A stretch of DNA of 14,574 nucleotides. Source: Halobacteriales archaeon SW_5_68_122. GTDB taxonomy: Archaea; Halobacteriota; Halobacteria; Halobacteriales; Haloarculaceae. Positions 3,134 to 11,762 of the stretch are shown in pieces (position 1 is the stretch's first letter; every line of letters begins with the position of its first letter). The position numbers and the translations under genes were made by a program. The stretch covers positions 1 to 14,574 of the forward strand of contig PXSL01000029.1 in assembly GCA_003022815.1 (NCBI GenBank), read 5' to 3'. The notes below the pieces were generated by a model. It was not told where the DNA came from. It searched no databases and saw only the letters and a program-made list of their open reading frames with translations.

Positions 3134-4817
3134 ATGACCGACCGGGAGGTGAGCGTCGTCCTGCCCGCCTACAACGAGGCGGACACCATCGAACACACCG
3201 TCGAGGTGACGCTCGAGACGCTCGCTTCCTTCCTGCCCGCAGGCGCCTTCGAGATCATCGTCGCCGAGGACGGCTGCAACGACCGGACGCCCGACATCGC
3301 CGACCGGATGGCCGACGCCGACGACCGGATTCGGCACGTCCACAGCGACGAACGGCTCGGCCGGGGCGGCGCCCTGGAACGGGCCTTCCGCGAGAGCCAC
3401 GGCGACGTGCTGGCCTACTTCGATACGGACCTCGCGACGGAGATGAAGCACCTCGAGAAACTAATCGAGTCCGTCCGCACCGAGGGGTACGACATCGCCA
3501 CGGGGTCCCGGCGGATGCCGGGCAACGAACAGGAGCGAAACCCCGAGCGGGGCGTCGCCTCTACCGGATTCAACTCGCTGGTCCGGCTGTTCCTCCGGTC
3601 GCCGATGTACGACCACCAGTGCGGGTTCAAAGCGTTCGACCGCGGGGCGCTATTCGCGCTACTCGAAAACGTCGAGGACGACCACTGGTTCTGGGACACC
3701 GAGGTGTTGGTCCGCGCTCAGCGGGCCGGCTACGACGTCCGGGAGTTCCCCGTCGAGTGGGCGCCGAAGGGTGACACGACGGTCGACCTGGTCCGGGATG
3801 TCTTCGGGATGGGCAGTCAGATACTCCGGCTGTGGTGGCAGGTGGCCGTCAGTCCGCGCCTCGACCGCCGGGTGACGACGGCCGCGGGGACGCTGCTCGT
3901 TCTCGTCGCCGTCGCGCTGATGACGGTGTATCTGGACCCCTCGGCGGTACTCGACGCCGTGGGCAGTGCCGACCCGGCGCTGGTCGGCCTCGCAACGCTC
4001 GTGTACCTGCTGTCGTGGCCGCTCCGGGGCCTCCGGTACCGGGACATCCTCGCGGAGCTCGGCTACCGCGAGCGGGTCGGCTTCCTCACTGGGGCGGTGT
4101 TCATCAGTCAGACGGGCAACCTCGTCTTCCCGGCCCGACTCGGCGACGGGGTCCGAGCCTACGTGGTGAAGGCCCGCCGCGACATCCCCTACCCGTCCGG
4201 ATTCGCGTCGCTGGCCATCGAGCGGGTATTCGACCTGCTGACCATCGCGGCGCTTGCGGGCGGGACGTTCATTGCGCTCGCGGTCGCCGGCGTCGACGTG
4301 ACCGCCATCGGCGCGGCCGGGGAGTCGGGCGGCGCCGAGCGGAGCGGCCGGACGGCCGTCTACGTCGCCGGCGGCGTCGGGGCCGCCGCCGTCGCCGCCG
4401 TCGGCCTCATCGTGGCGACGGCCCGCTCGGACCGGAACCTCGTGCGGGCCACGCTCGGCCGGGTCAGCGACGACTCCTACGTCGAGTACGTCGCGGGCGT
4501 CGTCGAGCGGTTCGCCGGCGGCCTGGGAACTCGTCGCCGTCGGCTTCTTCGCCGTCAGCGTCGGCAACCTGGCGAAGGTGCTGCCGCTGTCGCCGGGCGG
4601 CATCGGCCTCTACGAGGGGGCGTTCACGCTCATCGTGGTGGCGCTGACGCCGGTGCCGGCGGCCGTCGCGCTGTCGGCGGCCGTCGTCGACCACGCCGCC
4701 AAGAACGTCGTCACCGTCGTCGGCGGCGTCGCCTCCACGCTGCTGTTCAACATCTCGCTGACCGCGGCCGTCGAGGAGTCCCGCGACGTCGAGGATGAGA
4801 CGGCCGCTTGCGAGTGA
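3134..4817 (+). pseudogene. aglD: AglD-like dolichol-phosphate glycosyltransferase with flippase-like membrane domain, frameshifted
   Basis: The N-terminal 230 residues are a GT2 (dolichol-phosphate mannosyltransferase-like) domain: SVVLPAYNEADTIE at 7-20, AEDGCNDRT at 44-52 and the metal/nucleotide-binding DTD at 97-99. Hydrophobic segments from about residue 255 onward form a lysylphosphatidylglycerol-synthase/UPF0104-type membrane domain. This is the AglD architecture; in Haloferax volcanii AglD charges dolichol phosphate with the mannose that ends the S-layer N-glycan. The frame from ATG 3134 stays homologous to about 4523 (VERFAGGL), then becomes an Arg-rich nonsense tail. The true C-terminus continues in another frame from TGG 4524 (WELVAVGFFAVSVGNLAKV, then LPLSPGGIGLYEGAFT) to TGA 4815-4817. 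From memory of the family, about 45-50 residues including a membrane segment are missing at the join, so this looks like a deletion rather than a one-base slip. The recoverable sequence is about 560 residues; I recall 626 for AglD. An assembly error is possible. Confidence 0.75.
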
Positions 4818-4989
4818 GTGTATAAACTGACCGCACATCGTCGGAGATTCCGGCGCGAGAGGGGTTCTCCCGAATCGACGCGCGGAAATAACGAAAAGAT
4901 TAAACAACTTTCGTACGTTCGTTTAATATCGATAGCTGACCGGGTCTTTTCGGGGTGTCCCCCCTGCCTGGTAGCACCCGCCCAGTAGC
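4818..4989 (+). promoter_or_regulatory. AT-rich tfb promoter region with inverted repeat
   Basis: This 172-base gap is the most AT-rich part of the window. TTAAAC at 4900-4905 and GTTTAA at 4921-4926 form a six-base inverted repeat with a 15-base spacer containing CGTACG. TTTAATAT at 4922-4929 is the best TATA candidate and would start transcription near 4952, giving a leader of about 40 nt. A second TATAAA at 4821-4826 lies just after the aglD stop. The repeat overlaps the TATA candidate, so a repressor or TFB itself could act here; this is inference. Confidence 0.45.
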
Positions 4990-5887
4990 ATGAACAAGCA
5001 CACACGAACGCGAACGACCGATGAGGAAACGGAAACCGAACGAGACGAGCGTGCCGGCTGTCCGGAGTGCGACGGCGACCTCGCCGCCAGCGGCGCCGAG
5101 ACCGTCTGCCAGAGCTGTGGCCTCGTGGTCGAGGCCGACGAAATCGACCGGGGGCCGGAGTGGCGGGCCTTCGACAGCGCCGAAAAGGACGAGAAGTCCC
5201 GCGTCGGCGCCCCAACGACCAACATGATGCACGACAAGGGACTGTCGACGAACATCGATTGGCGCGACCAGGACGCCTACGGCAACTCGCTGGATGCCCG
5301 CCAGCGCCAGAAGATGCAGCGCCTCCGGAAGTGGAACGAGCGCGCTCGGCCTGCCGGAGAACGTCCGCGAGACCGCCAGCGTCATCTACCGGCGCGCGCT
5401 CGACGAGAACCTGCTGCCCGGACGCTCCATCGAGGGCGTCGCCACGGCGTCTGTGTACGCCGCCGCCCGGCAGGCCGGCGTCCCGCGGAGCCTCGACGAG
5501 GTGTCGGGCGTTTCCCGCGTCGAGAAGAGCGAAATCGCCCGCACCTACCGGTACGTCATCCGGGAACTCGGCCTGGAGGTCAAGCCGGCCGACCCCGAGA
5601 GCTACGTGCCGCGGTTCGCCAGTGACCTCGAACTGTCCGACGAGGCCGAGAACCGCGCCCGGAAGCTACTCCGGAACGCCAAGGAGCAGGGCGTCCACTC
5701 CGGGAAGTCGCCGGTCGGACTCGCGGCCGCCGCGGTGTACGCCGCCTCGCTTCTGACCAACGAGAAGACCACCCAGGCGGCCGTCTCCGAGGTGGCCGAC
5801 ATCTCGGAGGTCACCATCCGCAACCGGTACCACGAACTGCTGGAAGCCGAGCAGGGCCTCGCGGCCGGAGCGAACTCCAGGTGTTGA
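4990..5887 (+). pseudogene. tfb: Transcription initiation factor TFB, internally deleted and frameshifted
   Basis: TFB is the archaeal TFIIB homolog that bridges TBP-bound promoter DNA and RNA polymerase. Seen in the first frame (ATG 4990): a zinc ribbon with C24, C27, C40 and C43 (CPEC and CQSC), then the linker EWRAFDSAEKDEKSRVGAPT and RQKMQRLRKWNER up to about 5343. After that the frame is nonsense. From about 5339 a different frame carries the cyclin core: SALGLPENVRETASVIYRRA, SIEGVATASVYAAARQAG, and a second repeat with SPVGLAAAAVYAA and SEVTIRNRYHELLEAE. In intact haloarchaeal TFBs about 20-25 residues stand between KWNER and the ALGLPENV block, forming the first helix of cyclin repeat 1; they are absent here. 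The join sits at the perfect palindrome GAGCGCGCTC (5338-5347). The last residues (GLAAGANSRC) run into pcc1 on the other strand. Haloarchaea usually carry several tfb genes, so losing one could be tolerated, but an assembly error is also possible. Confidence 0.8.
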
Positions 5888-6083
5888 GGCCGGCCCGCAG
5901 CGCCACCAGGTCGTCGGCGCCGACATCGACCCGGACCGCGGCGCCGTCGCGGAAGACCGCCGCCGCGGACCTGTCGCCGTCTATCTCGCCGACCTCCTGG
6001 GAGACGGCCGCGGCGACGAGGCCGGCGGCGTCGCTGTCGGGGTAACGGAAGGTCAGCGTGGCCGCGTGCGGACGGTCAGTCAC
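5811..6083 (-). CDS. pcc1: KEOPS complex subunit Pcc1, with an abnormal C-terminus
   Basis: A 90-residue frame from GTG 6083. Pcc1 is the small dimerisation subunit of KEOPS, the complex that installs threonylcarbamoyl on A37 of ANN-decoding tRNAs. Seen: ATLTFRYPD near the start, VGEIDGDRSAAAV at 31-43 and the conserved LRAGLNTW at 62-69. Family members normally end with a short hydrophobic helix soon after LNTW. Here the remaining 21 residues are Arg/Pro-rich (start SSLRPRGPARLP) and are simply the antisense of the tfb 3' end, with which the gene overlaps by 77 bases. The natural last residues therefore appear to be replaced, probably by a deletion joining the two 3' ends near 5865-5885. It follows rpoP by 13 bases and is the last gene of the rpl37ae-rpoP-pcc1 unit. 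Confidence 0.75.
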   Translation of the reverse strand: MTDRPHAATLTFRYPDSDAAGLVAAAVSQEVGEIDGDRSAAAVFRDGAAVRVDVGADDLVALRAGLNTWSSLRPRGPARLPAVRGTGCGW

Positions 6084-6096
6084 GAGAAGAACGGCG

Positions 6097-6231
6097 CTAC
6101 TGTACGTTGACTTCCTTGATGTCGCGGCTCCGCTCCTTCAGCAGGACGCGGTGGCCGCAGTACGGACAGCGGACGCCGCCGTATTCGTCGAGTTCGACGT
6201 CGCGCTTGCAACGGGAGCACTTGTAGCTCAT
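6097..6231 (-). CDS. rpoP: DNA-directed RNA polymerase subunit P (RpoP/Rpb12)
   Basis: A complete 44-residue protein from ATG 6231 to TAG 6097-6099. RpoP is the small zinc-ribbon subunit of archaeal RNA polymerase, corresponding to eukaryotic Rpb12. Seen: [19 protein letters not shown], then [18 protein letters not shown], giving the metal-binding cysteines C5, C8, C22 and C25. Length and motif spacing are normal for the family. It lies three bases after the L37Ae stop and 13 bases before pcc1, so the three genes are almost certainly co-transcribed from the promoter upstream of rpl37ae. Confidence 0.95.
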
Positions 6232-6234
6232 GTC

Positions 6235-6498
6235 TTACGCCTCGTCTTCGCCGAGGGCGGCGCGAATCGACCGCGTGACGGTCTTGCCGGCCGGCGTCTC
6301 CGGACGGTAGGCGCCGCCGGTGAACGTCTCGCCGGTCTTCTCGTTGACCCAGATGCCCGTGCCGACGCGCTTGACGTCGTCGCCGTCGACCTGTGCGTTC
6401 TCGGTGTCCTCCTCGATCTCGGCGACGCGGCGGCGGGCGACCCGGCCGTATCGGGCCCCGAACCGCCCGGCGCTACCGGTCGAACCTCGTTCGGCCAT
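6235..6498 (-). CDS. rpl37ae: 50S ribosomal protein L37Ae (eL43), variant lacking zinc-binding cysteines
   Basis: An 87-residue protein from ATG 6498 to TAA 6235-6237. L37Ae (eL43) is a large-subunit ribosomal protein normally built around a CxxC...CxxC zinc ribbon. Seen: the typical start [20 protein letters not shown], then [24 protein letters not shown] and an acidic end. Where family members carry CPxCG and CxxC, this protein has AQVDGDD and [12 protein letters not shown], so there is not one cysteine in the sequence. The flanking motifs are well aligned, so this is substitution rather than deletion. It may be a zinc-independent version of the kind known for other ribosomal proteins. It heads the rpl37ae-rpoP-pcc1 operon. 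Confidence 0.9.
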
Positions 6499-6524
6499 AG
6501 TATTGTATTATCGGCCCAGCGGAT

Positions 6525-6531
6525 GGATAAA
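6525..6531 (-). promoter_or_regulatory. TATA box of the rpl37ae-rpoP-pcc1 operon
   Basis: Read on the minus strand this is TTTATCC, centred about 30 bases before the rpl37ae ATG at 6498. Standard archaeal spacing puts the transcript start near 6502, so the mRNA would be nearly leaderless. A further AT-rich stretch (ATAATACAATA) lies between the box and the start. Confidence 0.6.
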
Positions 6532-6590
6532 CCCCACGTTTCCGCCTGCTCGGGCGACATCCATTTGTCGCCGGCCGCTAAACCTCGGGC

Positions 6591-6854
6591 ATGGCATCGA
6601 GCGGCACGGCCGACCGACTCGTGGTGTCGTACCCGGCCGACCTCAGCGACTGGGGCCGGATGCAGGTCGAGAAGCCCTCATTCCGGGCGTTCCTCCGGAA
6701 GACCCGCGAGCGCGCCGACCCCGGCGACGTCTGGGAGGAGTTCGTCGGCGTCGGCTGTTGTGGCGACACCCTCGACGTGCCGCTGCGGGTCGAGTCCGTC
6801 GAGAGGCCGCCCCGGACTAGTCGCGGAACCCCGCCTTCGCCAGCGCGTCGTTGA
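6591..6854 (+). CDS. Small conserved-looking haloarchaeal protein, C-terminus probably replaced
   Basis: An 87-residue frame from ATG 6591. Seen: RLVVSYPADLSDWGRMQVEK, then SFRAFLRKTRERADPGDVWE and EFVGVGCCGDTLDVPLRVES with a Cys-Cys pair at about 59-60. This resembles small uncharacterised haloarchaeal proteins with a GVGCCGDTLD signature; I know no function for them and assign none. No signal peptide or membrane segment is visible, so it is probably cytoplasmic. After VERPP the remaining dozen residues are Arg/Pro/Ser-rich and antisense to the end of the DUF2103 gene, which it overlaps by 38 bases. Family members that I recall are longer, so the natural C-terminus may have been lost by a deletion near 6810-6820. 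It is divergent from rpl37ae. Confidence 0.6.
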   Translation: MASSGTADRLVVSYPADLSDWGRMQVEKPSFRAFLRKTRERADPGDVWEEFVGVGCCGDTLDVPLRVESVERPPRTSRGTPPSPARR

Positions 6855-7539
6855 GGTCCGCCCGGACGTGCTCGCCGAGCTTCCGCTCGCCGGCGGTCGT
6901 GACCACGCGGTTCTCCTGGACGCTGGAGCCGTCTCGTATCAGCAGCCGGACGTTACCGGTGTCGTCGGCGCGGGTGGCCTTCGCGCGCACGCCGGTCTGT
7001 GACCCGGAGCCGCCGGCGTCGATTGGCCCGGGAACGATCTTCTTGACGTGGGGGTGATCGGCGACAGTCTCGAGGACGCGTCGGCCGTCCCGGTCGCCGA
7101 TGAGCGTCGAGTGGCTGCCGCCGAGTTTCTCGGCGACGGACGCCTCCACCACCTCGAGGGCCGGTTCGCCGCGCCGGCGCCGGACCGCCTCGACCGGGTC
7201 CTCGTCGCCGACCCGGTAGAAGGGGTAGCGCAGCTCCCCACGGACCGCCCGGAGCACCTCGCGGTCGCCGGCGGCGTACACCTCCTCGGGGCGCTTCCGG
7301 CGCACCTCGTCGGCGACCCGGCCGGCGTAGTTGCGAAGTTCGGTCGGTGCCCACCGCTCGTCGTTCTCGACGGCGGTCGTGACCGTCCGCTGGCCGACGA
7401 CCTCGTCCTCGAGCAGGGTGGTGACGGTCGCCCGCTCGCGCTCGCAGTCGACGACCACGGTGTCGGCGTTTTCGCTCCGGCAGACCAGACAGTAGTCGCC
7501 CGGCCGCTCGAGCGCGCTCGCACAGCACCGACACTCCAT
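6817..7539 (-). CDS. Zinc-ribbon DUF2103 family protein
   Basis: A 240-residue protein; I choose ATG 7539 because it begins with the zinc-ribbon motif and has a well-placed TATA box. The open frame continues upstream only as antisense of the methyltransferase gene. Seen: C3-x2-C6 and C17-x2-C20 (MECRCCASAL, YCLVC), a charged middle region with RPEEVYAAGDREVLRAV at about 83-99, and a C-terminal DUF2103 domain (about 138-235) with KLGGSHSTLIGDRDGRRVLE, VKKIVPGPID and TGVRAKATRAD, then VRLLIRDGSSVQENRVVTT. DUF2103 proteins are archaeal and of unknown role; the zinc ribbon and basic patches suggest nucleic-acid or ribosome contact, which is inference only. It lies 37 bases downstream of the methyltransferase gene on the same strand. 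Confidence 0.78.
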   Translation of the reverse strand: MECRCCASALERPGDYCLVCRSENADTVVVDCERERATVTTLLEDEVVGQRTVTTAVENDERWAPTELRNYAGRVADEVRRKRPEEVYAAGDREVLRAVRGELRYPFYRVGDEDPVEAVRRRRGEPALEVVEASVAEKLGGSHSTLIGDRDGRRVLETVADHPHVKKIVPGPIDAGGSGSQTGVRAKATRADDTGNVRLLIRDGSSVQENRVVTTAGERKLGEHVRADLNDALAKAGFRD

Positions 7540-7561
7540 ACCGTCGGAAGGCGTCTGCGTC

Positions 7562-7568
7562 GGATAAG
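7562..7568 (-). promoter_or_regulatory. TATA box for the DUF2103 gene
   Basis: On the minus strand this reads CTTATCC, centred 26 bases before the ATG at 7539. This is the expected distance for a leaderless haloarchaeal transcript. It suggests the gene has its own promoter although the methyltransferase gene lies just upstream. Confidence 0.5.
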
Positions 7569-7576
7569 TCGGCCGG

Positions 7577-8296
7577 TTACGGCCGGAGGACGCCGACGTA
7601 GTCGCCGTTCTCGTCGCCGATGGTCTCCTCGAGAGTCCAGGGCGTGTCGGCGACGAGTTCGCGCATCTCCTCGGGGCCGGCCAGCAGGTAGTCGAACCAC
7701 GGCGTGACGTACCGGCGGTAGCGCGCCCGGATACGGAGCGCGCCGGGCAGTCGCCCGCGCTCCCGGTTGCGCTCGTGGTACGCGAGGTGGTCTTCCTCGT
7801 CCGTCTCGGTCGGGTTGCGGCTCTCGGCGAACAGGACCGCGTCCTCGCTCGCAACGGCCGCGAGCGCCCCGAGCACCTCCGGGGCGCGCTCGCGGGTGCC
7901 GACCAGCCCGAAGTTGTTGCCGAACATGAGCAGGGTGTCGAAGCCGCTGTCGAGGGCGGCCGCGTCGGCCACATCGAGTTCGCGGGCGTCGAGCCCGCGG
8001 CGGCGGCACACCTCGACGGCGCCCGGCGAGACGTCGATGCCGAGGACATCGTGGCCCTGCGGCGCGAGATGGGCCATCGCGCGCCCGGCGCCACAGCCGA
8101 TGTCGAGGACGCGCCCCTCGGCGCGGTCTGCGGCCGTCTGCAGGCGGTCGGGCCACTCGGGGTACGGCTCGAAGTAGAGGTCATTCCCCCGGGAGGTGCC
8201 GAACCAGCCGTCGTCCCGTTCGAGTATCTCCCAGGTCTGCCGGCCCTCGTAGTGGTCGACCATCGCCTGCCCGTAGGCGTCTTCGTCGGCGTCCAT
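7577..8296 (-). CDS. Class I SAM-dependent methyltransferase
   Basis: A complete 239-residue protein from ATG 8296. Seen: the AdoMet-binding motif I VLDIGCGAGR at 63-72, the acidic end of strand 2 in GIDVSPGAVEVCRRRG (D88), FDTLLMFGNNFGLVG in the motif IV region, and a C-terminal WTLEETIGDENGDYVGVLRP. The fold is the seven-strand Rossmann type used for small molecules, RNA or proteins. The substrate cannot be told from the sequence. The N-terminal YGQAMVDHYEG and EILERDDGWFG segments resemble ubiE/tellurite-resistance-type methyltransferases in general, without pointing to one function. No truncation is seen. An AT-richer stretch at 8318-8326 (CAAAAGTC on the plus strand) lies about 25 bases before the start and may be its promoter. 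Confidence 0.85.
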   Translation of the reverse strand: MDADEDAYGQAMVDHYEGRQTWEILERDDGWFGTSRGNDLYFEPYPEWPDRLQTAADRAEGRVLDIGCGAGRAMAHLAPQGHDVLGIDVSPGAVEVCRRRGLDARELDVADAAALDSGFDTLLMFGNNFGLVGTRERAPEVLGALAAVASEDAVLFAESRNPTETDEEDHLAYHERNRERGRLPGALRIRARYRRYVTPWFDYLLAGPEEMRELVADTPWTLEETIGDENGDYVGVLRP

Positions 8297-8562
8297 GTGA
8301 AGTGGTCGAGAGAGGGAGTCAAAAGTCGGGCGGTGGCGTGCGAACCGTTGACAGGGTCAGCGCCGCGGAAGCTCGAAGGCCCTCGCGAGCCGGATCGACA
8401 CGGGATGTGGGGTCAGTTCGTTCCCGGCCCCGCCACACGGCTCGTTAACGCGGCGAGGGCAGGCTGTACACGGTGCCCCGTGGGTCAGGGCGGCCGGTCG
8501 AGGTCGACCTTGCGGGTTAGGCCAGCAGGTCGAGGGCGGCCGGTCGAGGTCGACCTCGCGGG
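8297..8562. other. 266-base intergenic region between truD and the methyltransferase gene
   Basis: I see no convincing gene here. It contains the probable methyltransferase promoter near 8318-8326 and a small hairpin at 8469-8482 (five-base CACGG/CCGTG stem, four-base loop, no T-run). Its truD-proximal end carries the first copy and part of the second copy of a 46-bp tandem duplication. No tRNA-like cloverleaf was found by eye. Confidence 0.5.
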
Positions 8563-8578
8563 TTAGGCCAGCAGGTCG
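8487..8578. repeat. 46-bp tandem duplication covering the 3' end of truD
   Basis: Bases 8487-8532 and 8533-8578 are two adjacent copies of the same 46-base unit, beginning AGGGCGGCCGGTCGAGGTCG and ending GCCAGCAGGTCG. They differ at one position (T at 8511, C at 8557). The copy at 8533-8578 contains the real last codons of truD and its TAA; the other carries a duplicate of those codons downstream of the stop. Each copy includes the ten-base palindrome AGGTCGACCT or a one-base variant. This looks like a recent slippage or unequal-exchange event. Confidence 0.9.
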
Positions 8579-9810
8579 GGGTCGACCTTCAGGAACTCCC
8601 GTGCCAGCGCCGTCGCGTAGCTTCCCTTCGGGAGCGAGAACGACAGCGTCAGTGGGTCCTCGGCGAGTTCGAGGTCGGTCGCCACCCGGACCGCGCGCCG
8701 CGTGCCCGTCGAATCGAACTCCCCCGACAGCGCGAAGTCCGCCGGCTCGATTCCAAGGTCGTCGAGGACGCCGCGGGCGATGTCTTCGGGGTCGCCGCCG
8801 CCGAACTCGGTGTCGGTGCCGACAAGCGGCGCGGCCACGAACGCCCGCCCGCGCTCGCAGTGACGGGCCACCGTCTTGATGCGGCCCTCGTCGACGACCT
8901 GTGTGCGGTTGGGGTCCGGCAGGCCATCGTCGTCGGTAAAGCAGACCACGTCGCCGGCGACCGGTCGATCGAACGGGAGCCCCCGCTCCAGCCGCGCCGA
9001 GCACATCAGGTTGAACGCGTACGACTGGGCGGCGTTGACAAACATCGACTGAAGGTTGGTCGGCAACCGCTCCAGGGCCGCCCGGTAGTCGGCGGGGTCG
9101 TCGGCGCTCTCGGCGAGCCGTGAGGCGATGGCCCGCTCGTACCGCAGGTGACCGGGTAGCCGCTCGACGGCCGCGTCCCAGTCGCGGGTCTCGCCGATCT
9201 CCTCGCGGGCTCGTCGAGTCCGCTTCGGTTCGTGCTCACTGGCCTCGCAGACGTAGCGGACGGTCGCCGATTCCCAGTCACCGGCGACGATGTCGAGGCC
9301 GACCCGGTGGGTGATGGGCCGTCGGGAGCCGAACCGCTGTTGGCCGAACCAGTTGGGGACCGCCACCTCGTCGCCCCGGCCGTCGCCGTCGGCCGCGAAG
9401 GCGCGCAGTTCCTCGGCGATTCCCTCGGCGTTCTCCGGCCGTTCGGCGTCCCGAACGACGATTTCGAACTCGTTGCCGGCCAGGTCGCCGAACAGCACCG
9501 GCCGGCCGGCCCGGCCCAGCACCTCGATGTCGGCGTCCCCGAGGGCCGGCAGTTCCGACGCCTCGAGCCGCACGGAGAACAGCTGGGTCGTCACCGCGTG
9601 CTTGTCCTTGGTGCCGGCCCACGACACCCGCTCGCGGCTCACGCCCAGTTCGTCGGACAGCGCCGCCGCGAAGTCGTTGGTGTCCCACCCGGCGAGCGTC
9701 GCCCGGAAGAAGTCGCCGGGCCGGTCGCGCAGGCGGCCGCCGACGCCGGCACCCTCGGAGACGTAGTACTCGATGCCGACGGCGCGCTCGACGGGGTGGG
9801 CCTCGCGCAT
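8563..9810 (-). CDS. truD: tRNA pseudouridine(13) synthase TruD, with an apparent in-frame N-terminal deletion
   Basis: A 415-residue protein from ATG 9810 to TAA 8563-8565. TruD converts U13 of some tRNAs to pseudouridine. Seen: [18 protein letters not shown] at the start, the catalytic GTKDK at 66-70 (Asp69) in [30 protein letters not shown] at 153-164, and the TRUD-domain stretch [20 protein letters not shown]. The region [23 protein letters not shown] is short. In other TruD proteins the phrase equivalent to 'DF' is followed by a conserved strand (V-x-E-x-x...) and about 25 further residues before the xATLxxWxTNDFA block. Those residues seem to be missing at 9706-9711, where two TTC codons meet, without loss of frame. 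Whether the protein remains active is unclear. It is separated from pth2 by an inserted toxin-antitoxin pair. Confidence 0.88.
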
Positions 9811-9857
9811 ACCCGCCCTGGGTGCCGGCGCGTGAAGCGTCTTGCGAGAGCCTCATA

Positions 9858-9935
9858 GTGATTACGCCCCGGGTCGCCGAGGAACTGGGCCGCGACGCGC
9901 CCGTCCCCTGGCAGTACCGGCGCGGGTCCGACTGA
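9858..9935 (+). pseudogene. Orphan 3' coding fragment or short ORF
   Basis: A 25-codon frame (GTG 9858 to TGA 9933-9935) reads VITPRVAEELGRDAPVPWQY followed by RRGSD. It has the composition of a haloarchaeal protein C-terminus (AEELGRD, PVPWQY) rather than of shadow ORFs, which are Arg-rich here. No start codon with promoter lies upstream, because truD begins only about 50 bases away on the other strand. It may be the remnant of a gene deleted between truD and the toxin-antitoxin pair. I do not recognise the parent family. Confidence 0.3.
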
Positions 9936-9944
9936 GTCGGGTCG

Positions 9945-10400
9945 CTACGCAACCTCGTGAAACCGCTCTAGAACCTCCGTCGGCACCGGGTTCCGGTACT
10001 CGAACGGTTCCCCCGAGCACAGCGCTTCGAAGTCCGTGTCGGTGGTACAGATGACGTCGGCGTCTACCTGCCGCGCCACCGCGAGGTAGAAGCAGTCGTA
10101 GACGTCGTGGTTCTTCGCCGCGCTAATTTCGTACGCGTCCCGGACCGTTTCGTCGTCGACGTCGACAAACTCCATCGGGTACTCGAGGAGGGACGACACG
10201 GCGTTCCTCGCGGCGACGGTCTCGAAGCCGAGGTCCTCGAGTACCCACTGCACCCGGAGCGGGAGGTATCCGAACGCGACGAGGGTGTCCGACCCGGTGA
10301 GCGCCGGCACCAGCGCCTCGGCCACGTACGGGTGGCCGGGGTGGTCGTCGACGAGCTGGATGGACAGCGCGTTGAGGTCCGGCAGAATCCGACGCCCCAT
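9945..10400 (-). CDS. PIN-domain protein, probable VapC-type toxin
   Basis: A 151-residue protein from ATG 10400, whose first base overlaps the stop of the AbrB-type gene upstream (TAATG). PIN-domain VapC toxins are Mg-dependent RNases. Seen: the first acidic residue D8 in LPDLNALSIQ, a FGYLPLRVQWVLEDLGFE segment in the middle, NHDVYDCFYLAVA with D102, and the C-terminal DADVICTTDTDFEAL with D121 and D123. The usual central Glu of VapC is not obvious in its standard place; E55 is the nearest candidate. The end (EYRNPVPTEVLERFHEV) is typical of a haloarchaeal PIN subfamily that I recall. Coupling to the AbrB gene and its location between two housekeeping genes support a toxin-antitoxin module. 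The open frame extends 18 codons further upstream but inside the antitoxin gene. Confidence 0.82.
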   Translation of the reverse strand: MGRRILPDLNALSIQLVDDHPGHPYVAEALVPALTGSDTLVAFGYLPLRVQWVLEDLGFETVAARNAVSSLLEYPMEFVDVDDETVRDAYEISAAKNHDVYDCFYLAVARQVDADVICTTDTDFEALCSGEPFEYRNPVPTEVLERFHEVA

Positions 10401-10657
10401 TAGGACCCCCCGAACGTCGCCTCGCCCGCGTCCCGGAAGGCCTCCTCGCCCCACTCCTCGTCCCGGGTGAGCGTCTCGAGGTCGGGAAGCTGGCGTATCA
10501 GCCTGATGTCGCCGCCCTCGCGGACCACCACGAACTCCGTCCCGCCCTCCAGCTGGAGGTCATCGCGTAGCTCCTTGGGGATCGTGAGCCGGCCGCGGTC
10601 GTTCAGTTCGGCCGTCCCGTACTCGGACGCGTCCCCGGACTTTTCGCTCGTGTCCAT
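10400..10657 (-). CDS. AbrB/SpoVT (swapped-hairpin) DNA-binding antitoxin
   Basis: An 85-residue protein from ATG 10657. A longer frame could begin at ATG 10690, but the TATA-like TTTAT lies at that point, so transcription would start downstream of it and the 10657 ATG fits better. Seen: the AbrB core TAELNDRGRLTIPKELRDDL at about 15-34, followed by EGGTEFVVVREGGDIRLIRQ. The C-terminal acidic tail (TLTRDEEWGEEAFRDAGEAT) is the sort that usually wraps the toxin. AbrB-type antitoxins repress their own promoter and neutralise the partner PIN RNase. The gene overlaps its partner by one base (TAATG), which ties their expression. No other AbrB-like gene is in the window. Confidence 0.82.
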   Translation of the reverse strand: MDTSEKSGDASEYGTAELNDRGRLTIPKELRDDLQLEGGTEFVVVREGGDIRLIRQLPDLETLTRDEEWGEEAFRDAGEATFGGS

Positions 10658-10683
10658 CGGTTCGTCGTATTGAACGCCCTCTA

Positions 10684-10702
10684 TCACCATAAATCGTGGT
10701 GA
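10684..10702 (-). promoter_or_regulatory. Inverted repeat over the TATA box of the toxin-antitoxin operon (candidate operator)
   Basis: TCACCA at 10684-10689 and TGGTGA at 10697-10702 are perfect inverted arms around the seven-base spacer TAAATCG. On the minus strand the spacer region reads CGATTTATGG, the likely TATA box, about 35 bases before the chosen ATG at 10657. A symmetrical site over the promoter is what an autoregulating AbrB dimer would bind. A CTAG, rare in this window, lies beside it at 10703-10706. Confidence 0.5.
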
Positions 10703-11168: not shown

Positions 11169-11762
11169 ATGATACTCTCCGATGCGGACATCCGCCGCCG
11201 GCTGGCGGACGGCGAGCTGGTCGTCGAGCCACTCGACGACCCCGAGTTGCAAGTTCAGCCGGCGAGCATCGACCTCCGACTGGGTCGGAAGTTCCTGGAG
11301 TTCCAGCGCACCAACATCCCCTGCATCCACCCCGACAGCGAGCAGGAGGTCGACGAGTACGTCGAGGAGACCCACGTCGAGGCAGGCGATGACTTCATTC
11401 TCCACCCGGGCGACTTCGTGCTCGGGACGACGAAGGAGCGCGTCGAGATCCCGCCGGACCTCCTCGGGACGGTCCAGGGACGGTCGTCGCTCGGCCGGCT
11501 CGCGGTTGTCATCCATGCGACAGCAGGTATCGTCGACCCGGGTTATGAAGGACAGATAACGCTTGAGCTGTCGAATCTCGGCACCGCACCGGTATCTCTG
11601 AATCCTGATATGCGGATCTCACAGCTCATTTTTACCGAACTGAAAAGCCCTGCCGAGCGGCCGTACGGCGCCGAACGCGGCTCGAAGTACCAGGGCCAGT
11701 CGGGTCCACAGGCCTCCCGCATTCAGTCCGACGAGGAGTTCGGGGGCGACCAGCGCTCATGA
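11169..11762 (+). CDS. dcd: dCTP deaminase
   Basis: A complete 197-residue protein from ATG 11169. It deaminates dCTP to dUTP on the route to thymidylate (some archaeal members go on to dUMP). Seen: PASIDLRLG at 31-39, the substrate-site motif GRSSLGRL at 104-111, [14 protein letters not shown] at 116-129 and ITLELSN at 130-136, which supplies the general-base Glu133. The C-terminus has [12 protein letters not shown], the triphosphate-binding tail. Codons 113-162 (about 11505-11655) are only about 50% G+C, against about 70% just before them, and use codons such as ATA, CTT, AAT, TTT and AAA that are rare in neighbouring genes. The protein sequence there is nevertheless normal, so it looks like a patch exchanged with a lower-GC relative. 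The stop overlaps the thiR start (ATGA). Confidence 0.95.

What the first reader, a model, noticed from the sequence alone, without database searches (positions are those of the whole stretch)
4520..9860. Cluster of short apparent deletions in conserved genes within about 5 kb
Six places show a conserved stretch missing or two 3' ends run together: aglD (about 4520-4526), tfb (5338-5347), tfb/pcc1 (about 5865-5885), the 6591 gene/DUF2103 (about 6810-6820), truD (9706-9711) and an orphan 3' fragment (9858-9935). Two cause frameshifts. One sits at the palindrome GAGCGCGCTC and one at a TTC-TTC repeat, suggesting slippage or short-repeat recombination, or the same event as an assembly artefact in GC-rich DNA. 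The genes further right (pth2, dcd, thiR) and to the left (leuA, zim) look intact. If real, this would be a genome eroding in a local region, including normally essential-looking genes.
Basis: partly seen in the sequence, partly recalled or inferred. Interest (0 to 1): 0.7.

Follow-up and report, generated by a model that had tools for sequence, protein, structure and literature searches.

The report
Assembly gaps closed without their DNA
Several genes in this salt-loving archaeon's sequence lack short pieces that the relatives compared still have, including a near-identical one for one of the genes, so the losses are most likely an assembly fault rather than a decaying genome.

Summary
The pieces are really absent from this sequence. 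Against Natronomonas-type relatives five short stretches are lost: aglD (125-128 bp), tfb (71), tfb/pcc1 (80), the 6591 gene (86-89 in five of six relatives) and truD (78). A sixth join drops about 1.3 kb, leaving the 3' end of an FMN-oxidoreductase gene. A seventh, weakly supported, may have removed a histidine-kinase gene.

Slippage is not supported: joins share 0-4 bp, near chance, and the palindrome and TTC-TTC are made by the joins.

Erosion is not supported: an AglD 97.0% (447 of 461) and 97.9% (95 of 97) identical on the two sides keeps the stretch between. Of listed homologues compared, 118 of 120 TruD, 119 of 120 AglD and 118 of 119 TFB keep it; the four others look truncated. The out-of-frame tfb half has dN/dS 0.05.

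The lost tfb stretch is 93-100% identical between tfb copies of one genome, which can break an assembly. Best reading: gaps closed without their DNA. Reads were not available, so this remains an inference.

The parts
3134..4520 (+). aglD-like glycosyltransferase/flippase, left part
   Evidence: Pfam PF00535 and PF03706; 447 of 461 residues identical to P0121, which is full length (602 aa)
4520..4524 (.). join 1, aglD: 125 bp (L083) or 128 bp (L002) missing, frameshift
4524..4817 (+). aglD right part, out of frame with the left part
   Evidence: 95 of 97 residues identical to P0121
4990..5341 (+). tfb 5' part (zinc ribbon)
   Evidence: PF08271
5340..5342 (.). join 2, tfb: 71 bp missing, frameshift, in a stretch nearly identical between tfb paralogues
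5342..5865 (+). tfb 3' part (cyclin folds), out of frame with the 5' part
   Evidence: PF00382; dN/dS 0.05 against L083
5865..5868 (.). join 3, tfb/pcc1 convergent 3' ends: 80 bp missing against L083
   Evidence: L091 has about 600 bp more here
5868..6083 (-). pcc1 without its 3' end
   Evidence: PF09341; 91-aa orthologue in L083
6591..6803 (+). small conserved gene (6591), left part
   Evidence: 113-aa orthologue in L083; no Pfam match in the window's version
6803..6811 (.). join 4: 86-89 bp missing against five relatives, 148 bp against L002; frameshift
8380..8480 (.). possible further join: short flanks of a histidine-kinase gene with about 1 kb absent
   Evidence: short, weak alignments
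8563..9810 (-). truD lacking 26 residues near its N-terminus
   Evidence: PF01142; 118 of 120 listed homologues have the segment
9708..9710 (.). join 5, truD: 78 bp missing, in frame
9850..9868 (.). join 6: 1,291 bp (L083) or 1,636 bp (L085) missing
9869..9935 (+). orphan 3' end of an NADH:flavin oxidoreductase gene
   Evidence: L083 orthologue matches PF00724; 81.5% DNA identity over 65 bp; stop at 9933

Best explanation
The window is a draft chromosomal sequence of a Natronomonas-type haloarchaeon whose 4.5-9.9 kb part was put together from short pieces. Stretches that the assembler could not cover or resolve were closed end to end without the missing bases and without N's. The tfb gap lies in a stretch shared between tfb paralogues; the other four short gaps lie in especially GC-rich stretches. 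In the cell the genes are most likely whole. Shown: the pieces are missing, the joins are near-blunt, and the relatives compared keep the pieces. Inferred: that the loss happened during assembly or record processing rather than in the cell.
For: None of the relatives that could be compared shares a gap: aglD 2, tfb 1, tfb/pcc1 1, 6591 gene 6, truD 13 relatives. P0121, 97-98% identical on both sides of the aglD join, has 44 residues between the two pieces compared, of which about 42 are missing from the window. 118 of 120 TruD, 119 of 120 AglD and 118 of 119 TFB listed homologues for which both pieces aligned have the missing segment; the four others give negative spacings, as truncated proteins would. 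Microhomology at four joins was 0-4 bp by script and about 1 bp at the 6591 join by hand; chance mean 0.83. The tfb 3' half, out of frame here, has dN 0.023 and dS 0.456. The lost tfb stretch is 93-100% identical in five pairs of tfb copies within three genomes, against 79-89% in the flanks, N's left out. In G001 a contig ends inside tfb about 27 bp from the join position. Two tfb copies of G004 carry N-runs of 122 and 111, upstream of the deleted segment. Four of five deleted segments fall at GC percentiles 84-96 of the region. L002, titled a MAG, has two private frameshifting deletions of like size, 61 and 116 bp.
Against: No reads, coverage, gap table or source record was available. The deleted tfb segment is not GC-rich (percentile 16) and is not the only paralogue-identical stretch: 19-28% of equal-sized stretches along tfb are as alike. 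The G004 N-runs lie upstream of it, not at it. The truD segment is no more conserved than the rest of the gene and I did not test whether it, or the segments of aglD, pcc1 and the 6591 gene, is repeated elsewhere. Fifteen of the 16 loci that I grouped as MAG or draft showed no such deletion by the same script, so this is not usual for such assemblies. Gaps of about 1.0 and 1.3 kb are large for a short-insert library and may be real gene losses. Apart from aglD, no comparison with a same-species sequence was possible: the closest TruD is 88% identical.
Confidence: 0.8

Rival explanations
1. The deletions are real and very recent in this strain: several near-blunt small deletions struck one 5-kb region, damaging aglD, one tfb, pcc1, the 6591 gene and truD.
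For: The sequence reads cleanly on both sides of each join. Relatives hold several tfb genes (9-14 DNA matches per genome in four genomes, some of them pieces of one copy), so losing one may be tolerated. Remnants of a histidine-kinase gene and an oxidoreductase gene suggest that real losses may also have occurred nearby.
Against: Five private short deletions lie within 5.3 kb here, while among 296 gene hits in 66 relative loci only L002 has frameshifting deletions of 30-400 bp, two of them. Parts that are out of frame show no clear decay. pcc1 (KEOPS complex) is widely considered important (recalled).
Confidence: 0.15
2. Replication slippage or recombination between short direct repeats removed the segments.
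For: The join at truD reads TTC-TTC and the join at tfb reads as a palindrome.
Against: Shared sequence at the joins is 0-4 bp against a chance mean of 0.83. The relatives shown have neither the palindrome nor TTCTTC at these places. The same palindrome at 7510 has no deletion. Breakpoints were read from relatives at about 80-90% identity, so a few bases of homology could be missed.
Confidence: 0.03
3. The gaps are ordinary natural variation shared by close relatives.
For: leuA shows one such in-frame 57-nt indel in L087, L089 and L090.
Against: None of the relatives compared shares any of the window's gaps.
Confidence: 0.02

Closest known systems
Scaffold gaps and collapsed repeats in short-read draft assemblies (general knowledge, recalled)
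   Same: Loss of about 70-130 bp in a paralogue-shared stretch and in GC-rich stretches, near-blunt joins, intact orthologues; assemblies of relatives end or hold N-runs within tfb
   Different: Here no N's mark the gaps, and there are several in a row
L002, record titled MAG Halobacteriales archaeon QS_1_69_70 (PXRI01000006.1)
   Same: Two private frameshifting deletions of 61 and 116 bp in aglD and thiR
   Different: Other positions, fewer events; whether its deletions are artefacts was not tested either
Pseudogene erosion in reducing genomes (recalled)
   Same: Frameshifts and truncations in several neighbouring genes
   Different: No clear follow-on decay; a near-identical relative has aglD whole

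Membership tests
Assembly artefact (gap closed without its DNA) | Missing segments present in very close relatives | tested here: met
   P0121 at 97-98% identity keeps the AglD segment; the other joins could be tested only against less close relatives
Assembly artefact (gap closed without its DNA) | Joins fall where assemblies break (repeats, extreme GC) | tested here: inconclusive
   tfb segment is paralogue-shared, but so are 19-28% of stretches along tfb; four of five segments GC-rich, tfb not
Assembly artefact (gap closed without its DNA) | Reads or coverage contradict the join | not testable with these tools
   No reads held; no whole genome held for the window
Slippage or short-repeat deletion | Direct repeats flank the deleted segment beyond chance | tested here: not met
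   0-4 bp by script at four joins, about 1 bp by hand at the fifth; chance mean 0.83
Eroding region or pseudogenes | Relaxed selection and further lesions after the break | tested here: not met
   tfb 3' half dN/dS 0.05; aglD 3' part 0.42 against L083 but 95 of 97 residues identical to P0121; a valid upstream aglD control was not obtained
Shared natural indel | Same gap in related genomes | tested here: not met

The most novel reading that the evidence does not exclude
A real, very recent burst of at least five near-blunt microdeletions confined to about 5 kb of one haloarchaeal chromosome, perhaps carried on only some copies of a polyploid chromosome, so that core genes are broken in those copies but not lost to the cell.
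Probability: 0.07. Interest if true: 0.55.

Novelty: not a real feature. Interest (0 to 1): 0.1.

Why it matters
It matters mainly as a warning: joins without N's can look like gene erosion or frameshifted core genes in draft and metagenome sequences. Near-blunt joins, an intact very close relative and undecayed out-of-frame parts are quick tests. If the deletions were real they would point to an unusual local mutational burst.

Tried and rejected
Slippage or microhomology: rejected. Hairpin-driven deletion: only the 6591 segment folds unusually stably (2nd percentile); the other four lie at percentiles 34-89. A break at an unusually conserved stretch in truD: not supported. A broad stop-to-stop ORF screen for base rates was too noisy, because it includes antisense frames, and is not used; the 14-gene screen replaces it. 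That screen sees three of the window's five short joins (aglD, tfb, truD), the other two sitting at gene ends, and counts only 30-400 bp; one-base and other small frame changes seen in relatives (in L041, L084, L085 and L089) are outside it. Its first version also missed tfb and the L002 aglD event. The grouping of 16 loci as MAG or draft is mine, from record titles and contig lengths. Flank identities for tfb counted N's and are replaced. An upstream aglD control for dN/dS was misaligned and is discarded. Script anchors at the 6591 join were poor; its length comes and its overlap from the alignments by hand. A viral-contig scan for a window 34-mer found nothing. The three plasmid matches were transcription initiation factor IIB genes. 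Literature: one search found one paper, PMC5532433, of which I saw passages on assembly and sampling; two searches were seen as search listings only and gave nothing that bears directly. I made no literature search on whether such joins have been described.

Full report
What the window is. The window is chromosomal DNA of a haloarchaeon close to Natronomonas. The best collinear match is L083, from a genome with a contig of 3,846,278 bases, a length that one search lists for Natronomonas marina (identity inferred from that length). Matched blocks are about 80-90% identical. No whole genome is held for the window itself.

Are the gaps real in the sequence? Yes. Comparing DNA with L083 and other relatives gives five short losses: aglD 125 bp (L083) or 128 bp (L002) at 4520/4524, tfb 71 bp at 5342, tfb/pcc1 80 bp at 5865/5868, the 6591 gene at 6803-6811 (86, 87, 87, 87 and 89 bp in five relatives, 148 bp in L002), and truD at 9709 (78 bp in 11 of 13 relatives, 76 and 79 in the other two). 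The aglD, tfb and tfb/pcc1 gaps rest on two, one and one relatives. At tfb/pcc1 a further relative, L091, has about 600 bp more than the window. A sixth join at 9850-9868 removes 1,291 bp against L083 or 1,636 bp against L085 and leaves the end of a gene whose L083 orthologue matches Oxidored_FMN. A possible seventh lies between truD and the methyltransferase gene: a 22-bp motif that in L001 lies just upstream of a kinase-like gene, and a short tail resembling the end of the L083 histidine-kinase gene, are present without the roughly 1 kb between. These alignments are short and this call is weak.

What happens at the joins? By best-split scoring, the sequence that could belong to either side is 2-4 bp (aglD), 1-2 bp (tfb), 0 bp (tfb/pcc1) and 2 bp (truD), and about 1 bp at the 6591 join, read by hand. 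Random joins in this window share 0.83 bp on average. The same palindrome at 7510 is not at a join.

Do relatives share the gaps? None of those compared does. Among the best 120 listed homologues per protein, the segment missing here is present in 118 of 120 TruD, 119 of 120 AglD and 118 of 119 TFB proteins for which both pieces aligned; the four exceptions give negative spacings, as truncated proteins would. The strongest single item is P0121: 447 of 461 residues identical to the left AglD piece and 95 of 97 to the right piece, with 44 residues between the two pieces compared, about 42 of them missing from the window. So a near-identical relative has the whole gene. For TruD the closest listed protein is 88% identical, so the other joins lack an equally close comparison. 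TFB has paralogues, so orthology of its best hits is not certain.

Has decay followed? The tfb 3' half, out of frame in the window, has dN 0.023 and dS 0.456 against L083 (ratio 0.05). The aglD 3' part has ratio 0.42, which by itself is not a sign of strong constraint, but 95 of 97 residues match P0121. Any real break would have to be very recent.

Why these places? For tfb there is a plausible reason. The deleted 71 bp is 93-100% identical between tfb copies of one genome (five pairs from G001, G003 and G004), while the flanks are 79-89% identical. It is not the only such stretch: 19-28% of equal-sized stretches along tfb are as alike. Assemblies of relatives falter in tfb: G001 contig C257 ends within tfb about 27 bp from the join position, and two G004 tfb copies hold N-runs of 122 and 111, upstream of the deleted segment. 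For the other four short segments the GC percentile within the region is 84-96, against 16 for tfb. That is suggestive only. The truD segment is no more conserved than the rest of the gene.

How unusual is it? A 14-gene screen over 66 relative loci (296 gene hits, 221.5 kb of matched coding sequence) found five events of 30-400 bp: two frameshifting deletions, both in L002 (aglD 61 bp, thiR 116 bp), and one shared in-frame leuA indel counted in L087, L089 and L090. The same screen on the window (13 hits, 10.0 kb) sees three. L002 is titled a MAG of the QS series. The paper PMC5532433, of which I saw passages, names a driest site Qs and describes 100-base paired Illumina reads assembled with IDBA_UD; that L002 belongs to that study is inferred from its name. 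Whether the window comes from such a study is unknown. Fifteen of the 16 loci that I grouped as MAG or draft show no such event, so the fault is not a general one.

Verdict. The best-supported reading is a draft sequence in which unresolved or uncovered stretches were closed without their DNA. The mechanism is inferred, since no reads or gap table were available. The two larger losses (about 1.0 and 1.3 kb) may be genuine and are the least certain part. A real, recent burst of near-blunt deletions is not excluded.

Noticed in passing
L083:2756-4798 (similar inserts in L002, L005, L018, L046): dCTP deaminase (dcd) carries an in-frame insert of 1,437 or 1,446 bp; in L083, the only one scanned, it matches intein-splicing, LAGLIDADG and helix-turn-helix families. 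The window's dcd (11169-11762) has no such insert.
   Followed up: partly
window 8483-8578: A 46-bp unit repeated 2.1 times (96% match) runs across the truD stop codon; not seen by eye at that place in L083, L084, L085, L001 or L002.
   Followed up: partly
window 9945-10690: PIN-domain and MazE-antitoxin-type genes (a VapBC-like pair) lie between the oxidoreductase tail and pth2; L085 matches this stretch at about 90% DNA identity, L083 lacks it.
   Followed up: partly
tfb copies in G001, G003, G004 (L060, L061, L064, L065, L067, L068, L092): tfb paralogues within one genome are nearly identical over some stretches, including the one missing here, but diverged elsewhere, as gene conversion could give.
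   Followed up: partly
window 4817-4867 against L083 12922-13487: Between aglD and tfb, L083 has about 515 bp more than the window, overlapping a 174-aa open frame; unclear whether this is a further gap or ordinary variation.
   Followed up: no
L002:15363 and L002:5567-5602: Two private frameshifting deletions (61 bp in aglD, 116 bp in thiR) in a record titled MAG, with a few bases at the joins matching neither side well.
   Followed up: partly
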